From an uncultured Thermoguttaceae bacterium (GTDB lineage Bacteria; Planctomycetota; Planctomycetia; Pirellulales; Thermoguttaceae): a DNA stretch of 39,561 nt. The translations under genes were made by a program, and so were the position numbers. Within the stretch, counting starts at the first letter, position 1. Every line of letters begins with the position of its first letter. The stretch spans positions 1-39,561 of the forward strand of contig CALFBP010000096.1 in NCBI GenBank assembly GCA_937951625.1, written 5' to 3'. Shown here piece by piece: positions 17,436 to 25,594 of the stretch. Below the pieces are notes generated by a model. The model saw only the letters and a program-made list of their open reading frames with translations, searched no databases and was not told where the DNA came from.

Positions 17436-18167
17436 CTAAGCATCGTGGAACAGGCCCAGATCCACGACTCTTGCGTCGGGGACGAAGCGTTGGATGGCCT
17501 CCCGGGCAAGATTGCACCAGGCAGCGCAGCGGTCCAGGATCGCGCTATCGGCTGTCGCCACGATCTCGGAGCTTCCCATGAGCACGGCATCCGGATTGGG
17601 CACCAAATCCACGGACCACTGCCAACCGCGCTGCCGGGCGATTTCGTCGATGAACGTCTTGAGGCGTGCGCTATTGGAAACCGGCCGATCGAGAAGCCAG
17701 CGGCACCGCAAGATGCCGAGGGCCGCCGCGGTTTGCCCGATCGTTTCCAAGGCGGGCCGGGTTTCCGTGACACGGCGGAAACTGCCGTGCATGCTGGCCA
17801 TGTCTCGGAACGTTCCATCCCGGGCCGCAAGGATGACTCCCCCGGCAATCGCCGCCTCGACGGTCGTGAGAACATTGTAGCCGTCGATCGCCAGCGTTGC
17901 GCCTGCCAAGTTCGCCTCCGCAACACACGTGGCCCGACGACGATTCATTTCCCAGTCGGAGCACGCACAACGGGCCACTGCGGTACGCTGTCTGGCGGCA
18001 AGCTGGTAGCGATCCCCCACCAACTTTTGAGCGGCTGTCGCCGAATAACCCCGACTCAACAGCCAATTGAGGTCCGCCACGGCTTGCCGCAACGCGGGGA
18101 TTGCCTCGGGTGCGAACAGCCGAGCGTCGTCTGGATGGGGGCCGCGATGGCGCCGGGTGTCGGGCAA
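17436..18167 (-). CDS. DUF434 protein with PIN/NYN-like motifs
   Basis: Matches the DUF434 (plus DUF5616) type of two-part protein. The N-terminal helical part (about 15-70) ends in a C-x-C stretch (RCACSD). The second part opens with LAIDGYNVLTT (D95 to N98), the motif that starts NYN/PIN-type RNase folds such as YacP, and has further acidic positions expected for a metal site (D160, D193 in PNPDAVLMGSS, D207 and D212 in ATADSAILD). That suggests, without proof, a metal-dependent RNase. The start is TTG 18167 with AGGTGA six bases upstream. It is the last gene of the tsaB-archease-rtcB-PEBP run, 59 bp behind the PEBP gene. Confidence 0.75.
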   Translation of the reverse strand: MPDTRRHRGPHPDDARLFAPEAIPALRQAVADLNWLLSRGYSATAAQKLVGDRYQLAARQRTAVARCACSDWEMNRRRATCVAEANLAGATLAIDGYNVLTTVEAAIAGGVILAARDGTFRDMASMHGSFRRVTETRPALETIGQTAAALGILRCRWLLDRPVSNSARLKTFIDEIARQRGWQWSVDLVPNPDAVLMGSSEIVATADSAILDRCAAWCNLAREAIQRFVPDARVVDLGLFHDA

Positions 18168-18226
18168 GCGTCGTCACCTGTGCTTTCCAGCGGCATTGCC
18201 GGCGTTGGAGCAAACGTCGCCGGTGC

Positions 18227-18859
18227 CTACCGCTGATAAGTGCCCATCAACTGGCCCTCGGCCAGAATGTGACCAGCCATTTTGGCGAGCAACTGCTCCT
18301 TGGTGAGGCCGGGCGGGGCATCCAAAGGCTGGTCCAGGGCATACAACTTGAAGTAATAGCGATGCGGTTTTCCCGGCGGGGGCATCGGGCCGCGGTAGCC
18401 GATGTTCTCGCCCTCCGGCCAGGAGTTCTTGCCTTGCGCGCAACCAGCAGGCTGTTTCGGTTTGGCCACGGCTTCGATGCCCTCGGGCAGACCCCGGGCA
18501 TCCGCGGGTATGTTGTAGATCACCCAATGGACCCACGGATCCCTGCGGGGCGCGTCCGGGTCGTCGCAAATCAGGGCGAATTGCCGGGTTCCCTGGGGCG
18601 GGTTCGACCACTCCAAGGCCGGCGACACATCCTCGCCCTCGCCCGTATGTTTTCGGGGAATCGGCGACCCCTCCTTGAACGCCGGACTGGTAATCGTGAG
18701 TTTCATGACCTTGTCTCCTTGTGAACCGGCCACGGTTGAAGCTGAAGAGATGTTTTTCGACCCCGCCTTCTGGTCGGCCGCTTGGCAACCGCACTCGGCC
18801 AACGAAAGCAAGATCGCCATCCCGAACCCCAGCACCCTCGGCACCTCGCATTGGACCAT
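18227..18859 (-). CDS. YbhB/YbcL-type PEBP (Raf kinase inhibitor-like) protein, exported
   Basis: Phosphatidylethanolamine-binding-protein family, bacterial YbhB/YbcL branch. Family signatures: FKEGSPIPRKHTGEGEDVSP, ICDDPDAPRRDPWVHWVIYN (the DPDxP and HW ligand-binding motifs), and GYRGPMPPPGKPHRYYF. An N-terminal hydrophobic segment (about 9-28) ending CGCQA and a 20-residue linker precede the domain, so it is exported and perhaps lipid-anchored, although LAEC is a poor lipobox. ATG 18859 has GGAGG six bases upstream. It sits 36 bp behind rtcB. The bacterial role of this family is unsettled; a ligand-binding or inhibitory role is plausible. Confidence 0.9.
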   Translation of the reverse strand: MVQCEVPRVLGFGMAILLSLAECGCQAADQKAGSKNISSASTVAGSQGDKVMKLTITSPAFKEGSPIPRKHTGEGEDVSPALEWSNPPQGTRQFALICDDPDAPRRDPWVHWVIYNIPADARGLPEGIEAVAKPKQPAGCAQGKNSWPEGENIGYRGPMPPPGKPHRYYFKLYALDQPLDAPPGLTKEQLLAKMAGHILAEGQLMGTYQR

Positions 18860-18895
18860 GATTTCCTCCCCCGAGTTGATTCCCTCCCCCTCGTC

Positions 18896-20359
18896 TCAAC
18901 CTTTGACCACGCCAACCGGACGCAGCCGAGCAACCTTTCGCGCAAGGTTGGCGCGGTGGACCACGTCGACGACTTGGCTCACGTCTTTATACGCGGCGGG
19001 CTGTTCTTCGGCGAGCCCGTGCCGACTTCGAGCTCGGGCGACCACGCCCAACGCGGCCAGCTCCTGGTCGATCCGGCGTCCTTTGGCGTCTTGAATCGCG
19101 GCCGTGCGACTCATCACCCGGCCTGCCCCATGGCAGGTGGTGCCAAACGATTTCTTCATGCTATCGCCCTGCCCGACGAGCACCCAACTTGCCCGACCCA
19201 TGTCGCCGGGAATGATCACCGGTTGGCCGATCTGACGGTACTGTTGGGGGACCTCGGGATGACCGGCGGGAAAGGCCCGCGTCGCGCCCTTGCGATGCAC
19301 GCAGACGGTTTTCTCCACCCCATCGATCGTGTGCTTCTCGATCTTGGCGATGTTGTGGGCCACGTCGTAGACCAAGCCCATTTGGAGCGATTCCCAACTC
19401 CTGCCGAAGAATTCGGCAAAGCACTCGCGGGTCTGCCACATTAGGAGCTGACGGTTGGCCCAAGCGTAATTGGCCGCCGCCCGCATCGCTCCAAGATACG
19501 CCTGGCCTTCCGGGCTGTCGACCGGGGCACAGGCCAGTTGCCGATCGGGAAGCTGGATGCCGTATCGCGCAGGCACTTTGCGAAAATCCCGAAGGGCGTC
19601 GTCGCACACTTGGTAGCCCAACCCCCGCGATCCTGAATGGATCATCACGCAAATCTGCCCAAGCTCCAAGCCCATGACCCGGGCAGCCTCTTGGTCGAAA
19701 ATCTCGTCCACCACTTGGACCTCGAGGAAGTGATTCCCCGAGCCGAGCGTGCCGCACTGGTCGCTGCCGCGTTCCAGGGCTTTGGGGCTGACGAGGTCGG
19801 GCCGGGCGTCGGCCAGACAACCGTTCGCTTCCGTATGTTCGATGTCGCCCGCCGTGGCGAGGCCTTGGCTCTGCAAATACCGACACCCCTCGCCGAGCAA
19901 ACGCTGGAGTTCCTTACCGCCAAACAGGTAGGGTCCCCCCTCGCCCACCCCAGCCGGAATGCGACGGAAAAGCGCGTCGATCAAGGCCGGGATTTGCGGT
20001 TTAATCTCGTCAAGATGCAGGTTGCTGCGGACCAGACGAACACCGCAATTGATGTCATAGCCCACACCACCCGGAGAAATGACCCCACCCTCAGCCGGGT
20101 CAGTCGCGCACACCCCTCCAATGCAGAACCCATAACCCCAATGGATGTCGGGCATGGCCAGACTGGCCATTTGGATTCCCGGCAGATGAGCGACATTGGC
20201 CACTTGTTCGGGCGACTGGTCCTGTCGCACCTGGTCCAGCAGATGTTCGTCGACGAAAATGCGCCCCTCGACCCGCATCCCTGACTTGTAGGAGGTTGGA
20301 ATCCTCCAGCAACTTTCGTCAATCTGTTCGAGAGGCCCTTTAAAACTTTGCTGGCTCAT
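18896..20359 (-). CDS. rtcB: RNA-splicing ligase RtcB
   Basis: GTP- and Mn-dependent RNA ligase joining 2',3'-cyclic phosphate or 3'-phosphate ends to 5'-OH ends, used in RNA repair and tRNA splicing. Metal and catalytic motifs present: MPDIHWGYGFCIGG (D71, H73), GGVGYDINCGVR (D102, C105), GSGNHFLEVQ, MIHSGSRGLG, VAHNIAKIEKH, and CHGAGRVMSR, which carries the guanylylated His. The 487 residues match the family. ATG 20359 has AAGGAAC upstream. The activator archease is encoded 150 bp upstream, and the gap holds a tandem palindromic repeat and a TAGAAT -10-like box, so rtcB may have its own regulated promoter. No RtcR regulator is visible. Confidence 0.97.
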   Translation of the reverse strand: MSQQSFKGPLEQIDESCWRIPTSYKSGMRVEGRIFVDEHLLDQVRQDQSPEQVANVAHLPGIQMASLAMPDIHWGYGFCIGGVCATDPAEGGVISPGGVGYDINCGVRLVRSNLHLDEIKPQIPALIDALFRRIPAGVGEGGPYLFGGKELQRLLGEGCRYLQSQGLATAGDIEHTEANGCLADARPDLVSPKALERGSDQCGTLGSGNHFLEVQVVDEIFDQEAARVMGLELGQICVMIHSGSRGLGYQVCDDALRDFRKVPARYGIQLPDRQLACAPVDSPEGQAYLGAMRAAANYAWANRQLLMWQTRECFAEFFGRSWESLQMGLVYDVAHNIAKIEKHTIDGVEKTVCVHRKGATRAFPAGHPEVPQQYRQIGQPVIIPGDMGRASWVLVGQGDSMKKSFGTTCHGAGRVMSRTAAIQDAKGRRIDQELAALGVVARARSRHGLAEEQPAAYKDVSQVVDVVHRANLARKVARLRPVGVVKG

Positions 20360-20411
20360 GAGCTGGGTTCCTTAATCCGTCCTTAACATTCTAGGGAGCC
20401 AGTGCGCCAAT

Positions 20412-20439
20412 CAATCCATGGTTGCCAATCCATGGTTGC
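20412..20439. repeat. Tandem 14-bp near-palindromic repeat upstream of rtcB
   Basis: CAATCCATGGTTGC occurs twice back to back with no mismatch (20412-20425, 20426-20439). Each unit is a near-palindrome around CCATGG (CAA-T-CCATGG-TTG). It lies in the archease-rtcB gap, about 53 bases before the rtcB start and just upstream of a weak -10-like TAGAAT (- strand, about 20387), the usual place for an operator. Confidence 0.6.
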
Positions 20440-20509
20440 CGCCGAACCAAGCTATCGTGCTTTGCCGAGGTTCCTAACGACTGGCCCGGTGAGAGGTTTG
20501 GATACGCAA

Positions 20510-20920
20510 TTAAATATCCACGATCACCTCAGCTAACCAGCCGTCCTCCGTTCGCTCGACTTTGAGACCATGATAGGTGATCGCTTTGACCTCGATCTGC
20601 GGTTGGTGCCTGTGTTGATCGAGGGGCTCGCCCAGCGCGCGGGCAGCAATGCCCTCGGTGGTTCGCCGAACTTCAAACTCGCAAAAGACAAGGCGTCGCG
20701 TGGCAAAAATGTATAAAAGCTCGCGCAACCAGTCGAGCAGCAGCTCATCATCCTCCTGACCGGGTATGATCAAATCCACCTGTTGGACTGGATCGATTTC
20801 CTCCGGTTTCGCTAAAAGGACCGCAAACAGTCCTTTAGCGGCATCGACAAACAAATCCTCCCAGCGGTTCGCGCGAACCCGAATCCCCACATCGGCGGTA
20901 TGTTCCATCATTTCAAACAT
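20510..20920 (-). CDS. Archease, RtcB activator
   Basis: Archease accelerates guanylylation and turnover of RtcB. All metal-site features are visible in 136 residues: EHTADVGIRV at the start (D10), DDELLLDWLRELLYIF (about 57-72), and the closing WLAEVIVDI (D135). I take ATG 20920 (MFEMMEHTADVG); ATGs at 20911 and 20908 are alternatives, and the ribosome-binding site is weak for all. The reading frame is open far upstream through tsaB in another frame, which is a GC-rich artefact. It lies 80 bp behind tsaB and 150 bp ahead of rtcB. Confidence 0.95.
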   Translation of the reverse strand: MFEMMEHTADVGIRVRANRWEDLFVDAAKGLFAVLLAKPEEIDPVQQVDLIIPGQEDDELLLDWLRELLYIFATRRLVFCEFEVRRTTEGIAARALGEPLDQHRHQPQIEVKAITYHGLKVERTEDGWLAEVIVDI

Positions 20921-21000
20921 TTTCGTGAGATCGCCTTGCTGGGTGGCTATCTGATCGGCACTGTTCCAGACCTCGAAAGACCGAGCCAGACTTGCCGACC

Positions 21001-21699
21001 TCAAGCCTTCCGGCTGCTTTGCTGTCTGCGTTCCCAACGCTCTTCCGCAGCGCTGCGCCGGTGGTAACGTGGAACGAGGGACCAGACGTCGTCGCATTCG
21101 CCCCGGGCGAAGCGGCGTGCGGCGAGGCGTCCCACGACCGCGGCCGTCGGTCCCCAATAGCGAGAATCCAAGACGAAAACTCCTTTCGGGAGCTGACTCG
21201 CCAACCCGCGCAGCGCCGGTCCCGCAACCGCAATCCCCGCCGGGAGCCTCGCCAACCAGGCCTCCCGGTCCACCAAGTCCCAAGGCCCGTCCGCAACCAA
21301 CTCGCCCTCTGGTCCGCGACAAAATAGCCCCTGCACGATCTGGCCCTGCTGACCGTCGATTACCACTGCGAGTCGGGTTATTTCGGCTGGACACGCGGCG
21401 GCGATGGCCTCGAAGGCGTCCACCCCGACGACAAGCGATTGAGTGGCGTAGGCCAGGGTTTTCGCCGTGGTGACTCCGACACGCAGGCCAGTAAACGAGC
21501 CTGGACCAATCGTCACCCCCACCCCCTGAATCTGTACGGGATCCCAACCCGCTTGCCCTAGAATCTCCTGAATGGCAGGGGCGAGGGCGCGGGCGGTTCC
21601 CTTCTCTGGAGGTAGTCGCCGCTCGACGATCAACTCTTCGCCGTCAAGCGCAGCGACGCTACCAACCGAATCACTCGTCTCGATGGCCACGATCCTCAT
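21001..21699 (-). CDS. tsaB: tRNA threonylcarbamoyladenosine biosynthesis protein TsaB
   Basis: TsaB is the inactive-paralogue scaffold of the TsaBDE complex that installs t6A at position 37 of ANN-decoding tRNAs. The ASKHA-fold opening MRIVAIETSDSVGSVA and the diagnostic GPGSFTGLRVGVTTAKTLAY are present, followed by VDAFEAIAAA and AVVIDGQQGQI. Start: ATG 21699 gives the canonical N-terminus and 232 residues; the frame extends to 21747 without support. It is the first gene of the - strand cluster with archease and rtcB. Partners TsaC, TsaD and TsaE are not in this window, but MtaB, which acts on t6A, is. Confidence 0.95.
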   Translation of the reverse strand: MRIVAIETSDSVGSVAALDGEELIVERRLPPEKGTARALAPAIQEILGQAGWDPVQIQGVGVTIGPGSFTGLRVGVTTAKTLAYATQSLVVGVDAFEAIAAACPAEITRLAVVIDGQQGQIVQGLFCRGPEGELVADGPWDLVDREAWLARLPAGIAVAGPALRGLASQLPKGVFVLDSRYWGPTAAVVGRLAARRFARGECDDVWSLVPRYHRRSAAEERWERRQQSSRKA

Positions 21700-24229: not shown

Positions 24230-25594
24230 CTACGTCGGACCGAGCGAGTCGCCTTTCCCGGCACGTGGTCTTGGGGCCAGTGTCCATCTAACTTCGGTTG
24301 GATCGGTAGCGAGGCTCGTGCCGGCCCGGGCGCTCGTCGCCAGGATGCATTCCCCGGCCACACGCTCGGCTGTGACGCGGACCAGGTGGTCCATCAATTC
24401 GGGTCCGCCGGGGAAACGCACGGTCACGTAGCGGTCCGCGGTTCCGCTGAGCTGCGAGGGGCGGCCTTCCAAAACCCTCTCGGCCACGACCTGAAGCTCC
24501 TGACCGATCAAGCTTGCACAGAACGCCTGGCGAAGCTGCCGCCCGATCTCGGCCAATTGGTTGGCCCGAAGCTGCTTGATCGCCGGGGAAATCTGGTTGG
24601 GCATGGTTGCCGCGGCGGTACCCTCGCGCGGGCTGAAGCGGAAGACGTGGAGCTTGGCGAACTGCGCCTGTCGGACCACGTCGCAGGTGGTCTCGAAATC
24701 GACGTCGCTTTCGCCCGGGAACCCGACAATCACGTCGGTCGTCAGCGCCGGCGCGCGGAGCATTGCGCGGACGCGGGCGCAACAAGCCAGGAATTGATCG
24801 ATGGTGTAGCGGCGACGCATCCGTTGGAGGACCGCGTCGGACCCGCTTTGCAGGGGAATGTGCAGATGGGGGCAAATCCGCTCCGGGAAGTCCGCCATGA
24901 GCTGCAAGAGCTCTGGATCGATTTCCGGGGCTTCAAGGCTGGAGAGGCGGACGCGGAACTCCCCCTCCACCCCCACCACCGCCCTCAACAGACTTACTAA
25001 GTTGGTCCGCCGCCTAGCTTTGACGGGCAACTCGGCCCCGTAGCAACCCAAATGGATCCCGGTGAGCACGATTTCCCGGTGACCGTGATCCACCAGGCGG
25101 CGGACCTCTTCGAGGACCTCGCTGATGGGTCGGCTGATGGGTACGGGCCGAACCTTGGGAACGATGCAATAGCTGCATTCTTGCGTACAGCCATCTTGCA
25201 CCTTCACGCACGCCCGATGCAAACGGTCGAACGCGGCGATCCCGGCAGGCGGCTCGACCTGGGCAAGTTCCCGGACCAACTCCGGCAATTGCCGCTTGTC
25301 GGTCACCACGCGCATTACCCGGGGCAGCGAGGCCACCTCCCCTGCGGCCCGGGTCGCGTAACAGCCCATGACGATGATCTCGGTCTGAGGGTTCTCGCGA
25401 GCAAGCGCGCGGATGATCTTCCTGCCCTTGTAGTCGCTTTCCACCGTCACCGTGCAAGTATTCACGATGCAGAGATCGGCCGGTTCGTCGGGGGCCGCTT
25501 CCCGGTACCCCGCTCCCAACAGGCCTTGGCGCACGTACTCCGTCTCGTACTGATTGACCTTGCAGCCGAGCGTGACCGTTTTAAAGACGCGCAT
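24230..25594 (-). CDS. mtaB: tRNA t6A37 methylthiotransferase MtaB
   Basis: Radical-SAM methylthiotransferase converting t6A37 to ms2t6A37 in ANN-decoding tRNAs. The MTTase N-terminal domain starts FKTVTLGCKVNQYETEYVRQ with its cluster Cys (also CIVNTCTVT and VMGCYATR); the radical SAM cluster is CTQECSYC. GIHLGCYG, HLHIPLQSGSDAVLQRMRR and TDVIVGFPGE are typical of the family, and a C-terminal TRAM domain (about 365-430) is present. A Pro/Arg-rich tail of about 20 residues is unusual. 454 residues, ATG 25594. It is read in the same direction as clpS but 199 bp behind it. Confidence 0.95.
   Translation of the reverse strand: MRVFKTVTLGCKVNQYETEYVRQGLLGAGYREAAPDEPADLCIVNTCTVTVESDYKGRKIIRALARENPQTEIIVMGCYATRAAGEVASLPRVMRVVTDKRQLPELVRELAQVEPPAGIAAFDRLHRACVKVQDGCTQECSYCIVPKVRPVPISRPISEVLEEVRRLVDHGHREIVLTGIHLGCYGAELPVKARRRTNLVSLLRAVVGVEGEFRVRLSSLEAPEIDPELLQLMADFPERICPHLHIPLQSGSDAVLQRMRRRYTIDQFLACCARVRAMLRAPALTTDVIVGFPGESDVDFETTCDVVRQAQFAKLHVFRFSPREGTAAATMPNQISPAIKQLRANQLAEIGRQLRQAFCASLIGQELQVVAERVLEGRPSQLSGTADRYVTVRFPGGPELMDHLVRVTAERVAGECILATSARAGTSLATDPTEVRWTLAPRPRAGKGDSLGPT

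What the first reader, a model, noticed from the sequence alone, without database searches (positions are those of the whole stretch)
17436..21699. RNA-repair cluster: tsaB, archease, rtcB, PEBP and a possible PIN/NYN-like RNase (DUF434)
Five same-strand genes with gaps of 36-150 bp. RtcB seals 2',3'-cyclic-phosphate RNA ends and archease activates it. The last gene has a DGYNV motif and spaced Asp residues like NYN/PIN RNases. A nuclease plus ligase-and-activator set together with a t6A-synthesis gene would make a cut-and-repair unit acting on tRNA, which I have not seen described. The RNase assignment and the operon are inferred.
Basis: partly seen in the sequence, partly recalled or inferred. 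Interest (0 to 1): 0.62.

Follow-up and report, generated by a model that had tools for sequence, protein, structure and literature searches.

The report
RtcB–PEBP–DUF434 cluster with FEN-like nuclease
A planctomycete keeps an RNA-sealing enzyme next to an unstudied protein that is predicted to fold like a nucleic-acid-cutting enzyme; the neighbourhood recurs in relatives, but the idea that the two cut and reseal the same RNA is not supported.

Summary
All five genes are real, on one strand, with gaps of 80, 150, 36 and 59 bp. The last gene is a two-domain protein, Pfam DUF434 + DUF5616. Its predicted structure (pLDDT 91) resembles FEN1/EXO1/XPG 5'-nucleases, a branch of the PIN-like fold: VIA-align Z up to 10.3 for the C-terminal domain, 49 of 50 listed rows from that group. 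Six acidic residues are invariant in 116 of 116 sequences. Foldseek and every sequence-profile test gave nothing significant; no NYN match was found. The recurring part is rtcB–PEBP–DUF434: in all 4 DUF5616-bearing genomes sampled from the window's family and in 10 of 112 other DUF434 loci. PEBP precedes DUF434 in 29 of 112; in another clade (27 of 112) DUF434 is divergent to an RNase-Z-like gene. tsaB is not a conserved partner (0 of 42 archease loci). A cut-and-reseal unit is unlikely: PIN-type nucleases normally leave 3'-OH/5'-P ends (recalled), which RtcB does not join, and PEBP has a signal-like leader in 13 of 29 copies. Best reading: a FEN-like nuclease that processes or clears RNA alongside RtcB, not one that makes RtcB's substrate. 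RNA as its target is inferred.

The parts
17436..18167 (-). DUF434-DUF5616 protein, 243 aa, TTG start; predicted FEN-like (PIN-fold) nuclease
   Evidence: Pfam; model; structure comparison; six invariant acids
17934..18092 (-). DUF434 domain (residues 26-78), helical, N-terminal to the nuclease-like domain
   Evidence: Pfam; helices in model
17502..17912 (-). DUF5616 domain (residues 86-222), FEN/PIN-like alpha/beta fold with D95, E104, D122, D160, D193, D207
18227..18859 (-). PEBP (YbhB/YbcL-like) gene; long start 18859 with a hydrophobic signal-like leader (no match to the lipobox pattern used), internal ATG at 18706 with its own ribosome-binding match
   Evidence: PF01161; leader and internal start
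18896..20359 (-). rtcB, archaeal-type RNA ligase, 487 aa
   Evidence: PF01139; aligns over residues 9-487 with P. horikoshii RtcB 1uc2
20412..20439 (.). 14-bp exact tandem direct repeat in the archease-rtcB gap, function unknown
20510..20920 (-). archease, 136 aa, RtcB activator
   Evidence: PF01951
21001..21699 (-). tsaB (t6A synthesis subunit); neighbour only, linkage not conserved
   Evidence: TIGR03725; not found in 42 archease loci

Best explanation
The 17436-18167 product is a FEN-like (PIN-fold), metal-dependent nuclease whose N-terminal DUF434 helices probably help hold a nucleic-acid substrate. In this branch of Planctomycetota it is kept as an rtcB-PEBP-DUF434 cluster. It most likely processes or clears structured RNA (for example precursor or broken tRNA) in cells that also carry RtcB, as a step parallel to or competing with sealing, and does not create the ends that RtcB joins. 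The archease-rtcB pair is the ordinary known ligase operon. tsaB is an unrelated neighbour. Shown: gene identities, recurring neighbourhoods, invariant acids. Predicted: the fold. Inferred: catalysis, RNA as substrate, cooperation with RtcB.
For: Models of the whole protein (pLDDT 91.2) and of the C-terminal domain alone (90.5). VIA-align: Z 8.0 (rmsd 3.4, 128 aligned) for the whole model and Z 10.3 (rmsd 5.0, 120 aligned) for the C-terminal model, both to FEN1. In one search, 49 of the 50 listed rows are FEN1/EXO1/XPG-Rad2/GEN1/ExoIX and the other is a universal stress protein at 6.8. In one search the first 43 rows are of that group, row 44 is a DNA polymerase I (4.9) and the first unrelated row is at 4.8. 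D95, E104, D122, D160, D193 and D207 are invariant in 116 of 116 aligned sequences, among them two Bacteroidota and one Spirochaetota. Neighbourhoods, of 112 loci: rtcB upstream in 10, PEBP in 29, RNase-Z-like gene divergent in 27 (RNase Z NCBIfam hits 3e-20 and 4e-22 for two examples, below cut-off). All 26 DUF5616 genomes of a 294-genome phylum sample hold RtcB, against 198 of the 268 others (p 0.001). Archease in 19 of 26 against 72 of 268 (p 4e-6), and within the order 8 of 9 against 17 of 48 (p 0.007). The two samples share genomes and no p-value is corrected for shared ancestry.
Against: Foldseek gave no match under E 0.001 in PDB or BFVD, and its top PDB hits are unrelated folds; only the second-look aligner ranks FEN first, and middling Z is common. 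Profile searches found no PIN/NYN/XPG family, nothing in PDB for the C-terminal alignment, and only a FEN-1 match at E 1.3 for the full alignment. Profile-profile scores against PolI 5'-nuclease and NYN sets were no better than against unrelated controls. FEN enzymes act mainly on DNA (recalled). 102 of 112 loci show no rtcB within 6 kb upstream, though many contigs are cut short. In the four plasmid records with a match no rtcB was annotated within about 7 kb (gene tables incomplete). Seven of the 26 phylum genomes and one of nine in the order have DUF5616 without archease. PEBP has a signal-like leader in 13 of 29 copies that have an ATG at the domain start, which fits poorly with one cytoplasmic RNA pathway.
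Confidence: 0.45

Rival explanations
1. The nuclease acts on DNA, like FEN1 or EXO1 (flap removal or repair), and its place beside rtcB and the RNase-Z-like gene is incidental.
For: The structural neighbours are nearly all DNA 5'-nucleases, and most of the 105 DUF434 loci show neither RtcB nor the RNase-Z-like gene.
Against: Two separate neighbourhoods carry RNA enzymes, RtcB (10 of 112) and an RNase-Z-like protein (27 of 112). The protein is too short for the helix-hairpin-helix DNA-binding part that follows the core in FEN1 (length and model; the FEN1 feature is recalled).
Confidence: 0.22
2. Cut-and-repair unit: the DUF434 protein cuts tRNA and RtcB with archease reseals it, with tsaB as a linked tRNA-modification gene.
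For: PIN-like fold, adjacency to rtcB in this family and relatives, statistical co-occurrence with archease. PMC7790460 passage: expression of VapC, a PIN toxin by recall, is reported to activate the E. coli rtc operon.
Against: Metal-dependent nucleases of this fold normally leave 3'-OH/5'-P (recalled), while RtcB uses 2',3'-cP or 3'-P plus 5'-OH (passage). tsaB not conserved (0 of 42). Archease usually not in the cluster. The Pfam scan of the five proteins shows no other RNase, and the tRNA splicing endonuclease PF01974 is absent from the genome.
Confidence: 0.08
3. PEBP-DUF434 is the real functional pair (an envelope or stress function) and rtcB was merely captured upstream.
For: PEBP lies within 500 bp upstream of DUF434 in 29 of 112 loci, with match-to-match distances of 6-33 bp in 15 of them, including a Verrucomicrobiota MAG (L117). 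In all 10 rtcB-linked loci PEBP is present too.
Against: PEBP is not found there in 83 of 112 loci (not all with full flanks), and PEBP and the RNase-Z-like gene never occur together, so DUF434 is kept without PEBP.
Confidence: 0.17
4. Catalytically dead or non-nuclease alpha/beta protein whose acids serve structure or a different chemistry.
For: No significant Foldseek or profile match; searches list unrelated folds first.
Against: Six acids invariant in 116 of 116 sequences from at least four phyla (phyla from record titles and taxonomy), in the topological order of the FEN/PIN core (FEN residue positions recalled).
Confidence: 0.08

Closest known systems
FEN1/EXO1/XPG/GEN1 5'-nucleases (PIN-like superfamily)
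   Same: Predicted core fold of residues about 66-230 aligns at Z 6-10 in the best rows; acidic residues at or near the ends of core strands; a DGYN motif as in archaeal FEN-1 2izo (weak match E 1.3).
   Different: No significant sequence match; N-terminal DUF434 helices; no room for the C-terminal DNA-binding region of FEN1 (recalled); in part of the loci beside RNA genes.
NYN / YacP (Rae1) RNases
   Same: Same broad fold class with conserved Asp residues (PMC11346440 passages).
   Different: No Pfam NYN or YacP match in 26 of 26 members; own genome has no match to either family; hhalign no better than controls for NYN.
Archease-rtcB operon (P. horikoshii type)
   Same: Adjacent archease and rtcB on one strand, as published (PMC3973293 abstract and passages); RtcB is found in 34 of 42 archease loci here.
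   Different: PEBP and DUF434 follow rtcB here; no such arrangement was met in the passages seen.
rsr-yrlBA-rtcBA RNA-repair operon of Salmonella
   Same: Contains RtcB; RtcA also occurs in this genome.
   Different: rtcA lies on another contig (C18); none of the five genes is an RtcR or Ro-type gene.

Membership tests
PIN-like superfamily, FEN/5'-nuclease group (fold level) | PIN-like alpha/beta core | tested here: met
   Two confident models; best second-look matches are FEN1/EXO1/XPG at Z up to 10.3. Predicted, and not supported by Foldseek E-values.
PIN-like superfamily, FEN/5'-nuclease group (fold level) | Conserved acidic active-site residues | tested here: inconclusive
   Six acids invariant in 116 of 116; D95, D122 and D160 end strands, D193 and D207 sit at or just before helices by DSSP; their clustering in space was not measured (no coordinates available).
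FEN1 family proper | Helix-hairpin-helix DNA-binding region after the core (recalled) | tested here: not met
   The protein ends 7 residues after the last strand of the core. So it is called FEN-like, not a FEN1.
FEN1 family proper | Structure-specific metal-dependent 5'-nuclease activity | not testable with these tools
   Needs purified protein.
NYN / YacP RNases | Match to the NYN or YacP profile | tested here: not met
   0 of 26 members match at E up to 10; hhalign probability under 1% for NYN.
RtcB RNA ligase | Full-length match and catalytic Cys/His positions | tested here: met
   PF01139 8.7e-172; alignment of residues 9-487 to 1uc2 with the DINCG, GNHF, GSRG, VAHN and CHGAG motifs aligned (their catalytic roles recalled).
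Archease | Full-length archease domain | tested here: met
   PF01951 positions 1-136 of 136.
Archease-rtcB operon | Adjacent genes on one strand | tested here: met
   Gap 150 bp; RtcB is found in 34 of 42 archease loci of the phylum.
Known anti-phage defence system | Match to a PADLOC model | tested here: not met
   0 of 5 proteins at E up to 0.01.

The most novel reading that the evidence does not exclude
DUF434-DUF5616 is an unrecognised, widespread family of FEN-like nucleases that works on RNA as a partner of archaeal-type RtcB (for example, deciding between destruction and sealing of broken or circular RNAs); it is present in archaea and many bacteria, and in the samples seen always where RtcB, and mostly where archease, is present.
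Probability: 0.17. Interest if true: 0.7.

Novelty: new variant of a known kind. Interest (0 to 1): 0.42.

Why it matters
DUF434/DUF5616 had no exact-word mention in the open-licence papers searched (DUF434 whole word 0; DUF5616 0; COG2454, a number recalled, 0). The DUF5616 family was also found in 3 of 14 control genomes, all archaea. A fold prediction plus six invariant acids makes the function directly testable. If it acts on RNA, it would add a nuclease to RtcB biology in bacteria; the Salmonella paper's abstract calls the substrates of the repair enzymes unknown (PMC7790460, listing and passages).

Tried and rejected
NYN/PIN by sequence: Pfam at E up to 10 on 26 members, PDB profile searches and hhalign against 22 PolI 5'-nuclease and 20 NYN sequences with PEBP, MBL and HAD sets as controls all failed to show kinship. 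For that test 28 of the 30 PolI loci and 24 of the 30 NYN loci were extracted; 6 and 4 of these were then dropped because they lacked the start motif. One search was a first attempt with wrong strands and was discarded.

Foldseek in PDB and BFVD: nothing under E 0.001; a phage 5'-3' exonuclease is third in BFVD (E 0.097). No NYN chain was listed, which does not exclude one.

Phage origin: no DUF434 match in phages and none confirmed in viral contigs. Plasmids: four records, none with rtcB annotated nearby. Defence: no PADLOC match. tRNA splicing endonuclease: absent from the genome held. Rfam families or tRNAs in the window: none. The promoter scan was uninformative. Of the 13 papers, two were opened: one search hit DUF4343 and one search hit DUF4340, other families. 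PIG-L appeared at E 0.005, below its cut-off, and was set aside.

Limits: the 112 DUF434 loci (25, 7; the window is not among them) include a few duplicates (116 tree rows, 111 different); L131 and L222 look like the same genome. Many contigs end close to the gene, so neighbour counts are lower bounds. The 42 archease loci are the 30 given out and the 12, the best-scoring ones and not every match; tblastn with the window's TsaB could miss distant copies. The DUF434 tree is weakly supported (20 of 108 inner branches starred); on it the rtcB linkage needs 8 changes and PEBP 13. The Fisher tests ignore phylogeny. That each of the 26 DUF5616 genomes is in the RtcB list was checked by eye. Archaeal neighbourhoods could not be read. 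Matelska 2017 (PMC5499597) and a paper looked up by a DOI from recall as an RNA-repair survey are not held, so whether either lists this family is unknown.
Full report
OBSERVATION. The five genes are present as described, on the - strand, with gaps of 80, 150, 36 and 59 bp. Profiles identify TsaB, archease, RtcB, PEBP and a protein with two named domains, DUF434 and DUF5616. The window lies in a 4.6-Mb, 98% complete genome that holds one RtcB and an RtcA on another contig. It belongs with Planctomycetota, near Thermoguttaceae/Pirellulales, judged by the nearest DUF434 rows. RtcB aligns over residues 9-487 with P. horikoshii RtcB.

WHAT THE LAST GENE IS. An alignment of the window protein with 50 relatives gave a confident model (pLDDT 91.2, pTM 0.89), and the C-terminal domain alone did too (90.5). 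Foldseek itself found nothing significant. The second-look aligner places FEN1 first in both cases: Z 8.0 over 128 residues for the whole protein and Z 10.3 over 120 residues, rmsd 5.0, for the C-terminal domain. In the latter, 49 of 50 listed entries are FEN1, EXO1, XPG/Rad2, GEN1 or ExoIX. D95, E104, D122, D160, D193 and D207 are the same in 116 of 116 sequences, including Bacteroidota and Spirochaetota plasmid copies. By secondary structure, D95 and D160 end core strands, and D193 and D207 sit at or just before helices, as in FEN/PIN active sites (the FEN positions are recalled). Sequence methods do not confirm kinship: no PIN, NYN or XPG profile, hhalign no better than controls, and only a FEN-1 match at E 1.3 on the DGYN motif. 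I therefore call it FEN-like by predicted fold, not a FEN1 and not an NYN.

NEIGHBOURHOODS. In a 294-genome sample of the phylum, DUF5616 occurs in 26, archease in 91 and RtcB in 224. A scan of named genomes gave 80 loci, the best of more; with 25 loci from the phylum sample and 7 from the order I examined 112 (some duplicates; window not counted). Upstream on the same strand, PEBP lies within 500 bp in 29 and RtcB within 6 kb in 10; a divergent RNase-Z-like metallo-beta-lactamase lies within 1.5 kb in 27; PEBP and that gene never occur together. Two examples of the lactamase match RNase Z models at 3e-20 and 4e-22, below the cut-off. In the window's family, DUF5616 is in 4 of 5 genomes sampled, and all four have rtcB-PEBP-DUF434 (window; L036; L217 and L222). 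Archease lies in the cluster in the window and in 2 of 112 loci, L121 and L187; in the three other DUF5616-bearing family genomes it is elsewhere (G167; G333 and G343). tsaB was found in 0 of 42 archease loci (about 1.5 kb flanks, window TsaB as query), so it is not a conserved member. Archaeal context could not be read, but DUF5616 rings in three archaeal control genomes, which also hold RtcB and archease.

CO-OCCURRENCE. All 26 DUF5616 genomes hold RtcB (p 0.001). Archease occurs in 19 of 26 against 72 of 268, and within the order in 8 of 9 against 17 of 48. These tests ignore shared ancestry and the samples overlap. The seven phylum-sample genomes with DUF5616 but no archease, and G298 in the order, count against a strict dependence.

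MECHANISM. RtcB joins 2',3'-cyclic phosphate or 3'-phosphate to 5'-OH (PMC3973293 abstract and passages). Metal-independent RNases make cyclic-phosphate ends (PMC7790460 passage), whereas PIN-like enzymes are metal-dependent (PMC11346440 passage) and normally leave 3'-OH and 5'-phosphate (recalled). If the fold call is right, the DUF434 protein most likely does not make RtcB's substrate. I take it to process or clear RNA in parallel with sealing. This is inference; DNA as substrate remains a serious rival because the structural neighbours are DNA enzymes. A counterpoint is that expression of VapC, a PIN toxin (recalled), is reported to activate the rtc operon in E. coli (PMC7790460 passage).

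PEBP. Of 33 PEBP matches in the 29 loci and the window, 29 have an ATG at the start of the domain. In 13 of these, the window included, the frame runs on upstream into a hydrophobic signal-like leader; 10 of the 13 match the lipobox-like pattern used, and the window, L145 and L189 do not. In these 13 the internal ATG has a ribosome-binding match of at least 4 bases in 13 of 13 and at least 5 in 9 of 13, against 79 and 18 of 301 other internal ATGs in the same loci. The 13 were picked by eye and are related, so the binomial p is optimistic. An exported PEBP would not fit a single cytoplasmic RNA-repair pathway.

VERDICT. The recurring unit is rtcB-PEBP-DUF434, not the five-gene set, and cut-and-reseal is unlikely. 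Papers were seen as search listings, abstracts and find-passages only; none was read whole. No exact-word mention of DUF434 or DUF5616 was found in the library searched.

Noticed in passing
window 18227-18859; L036, L113, L114, L118, L121, L134, L137, L145, L150, L187, L189, L221: PEBP genes beside DUF434 carry an in-frame signal-like leader (10 of 13 with a lipobox-like pattern) upstream of an internal ATG with its own ribosome-binding match, suggesting a membrane form and a cytosolic form from one gene.
   Followed up: partly
L144 590-1435, L171 7016-7861 and 25 other loci: RNase-Z-like metallo-beta-lactamase gene divergent from DUF434 in 27 of 112 loci; the two examples tested fall below the RNase Z cut-off.
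   Followed up: partly
window 24230-25594: mtaB (t6A37 methylthiotransferase, TIGR01579 above cut-off) lies about 2.5 kb upstream of tsaB on the same strand, so two t6A37 genes sit close together.
   Followed up: no
window 20412-20439: Exact 14-bp tandem repeat in the archease-rtcB gap.
   Followed up: no
L217, L222 (L131): Two PEBP copies in tandem between rtcB and DUF434 in family members; in L217 and L222 one of the two has a leader-like extension.
   Followed up: no
L169 8742-9458 and others: HAD phosphatase gene downstream of DUF434 on the opposite strand in 17 of 105 loci, 11 of them within 300 bp, mostly the RNase-Z-like loci.
   Followed up: no
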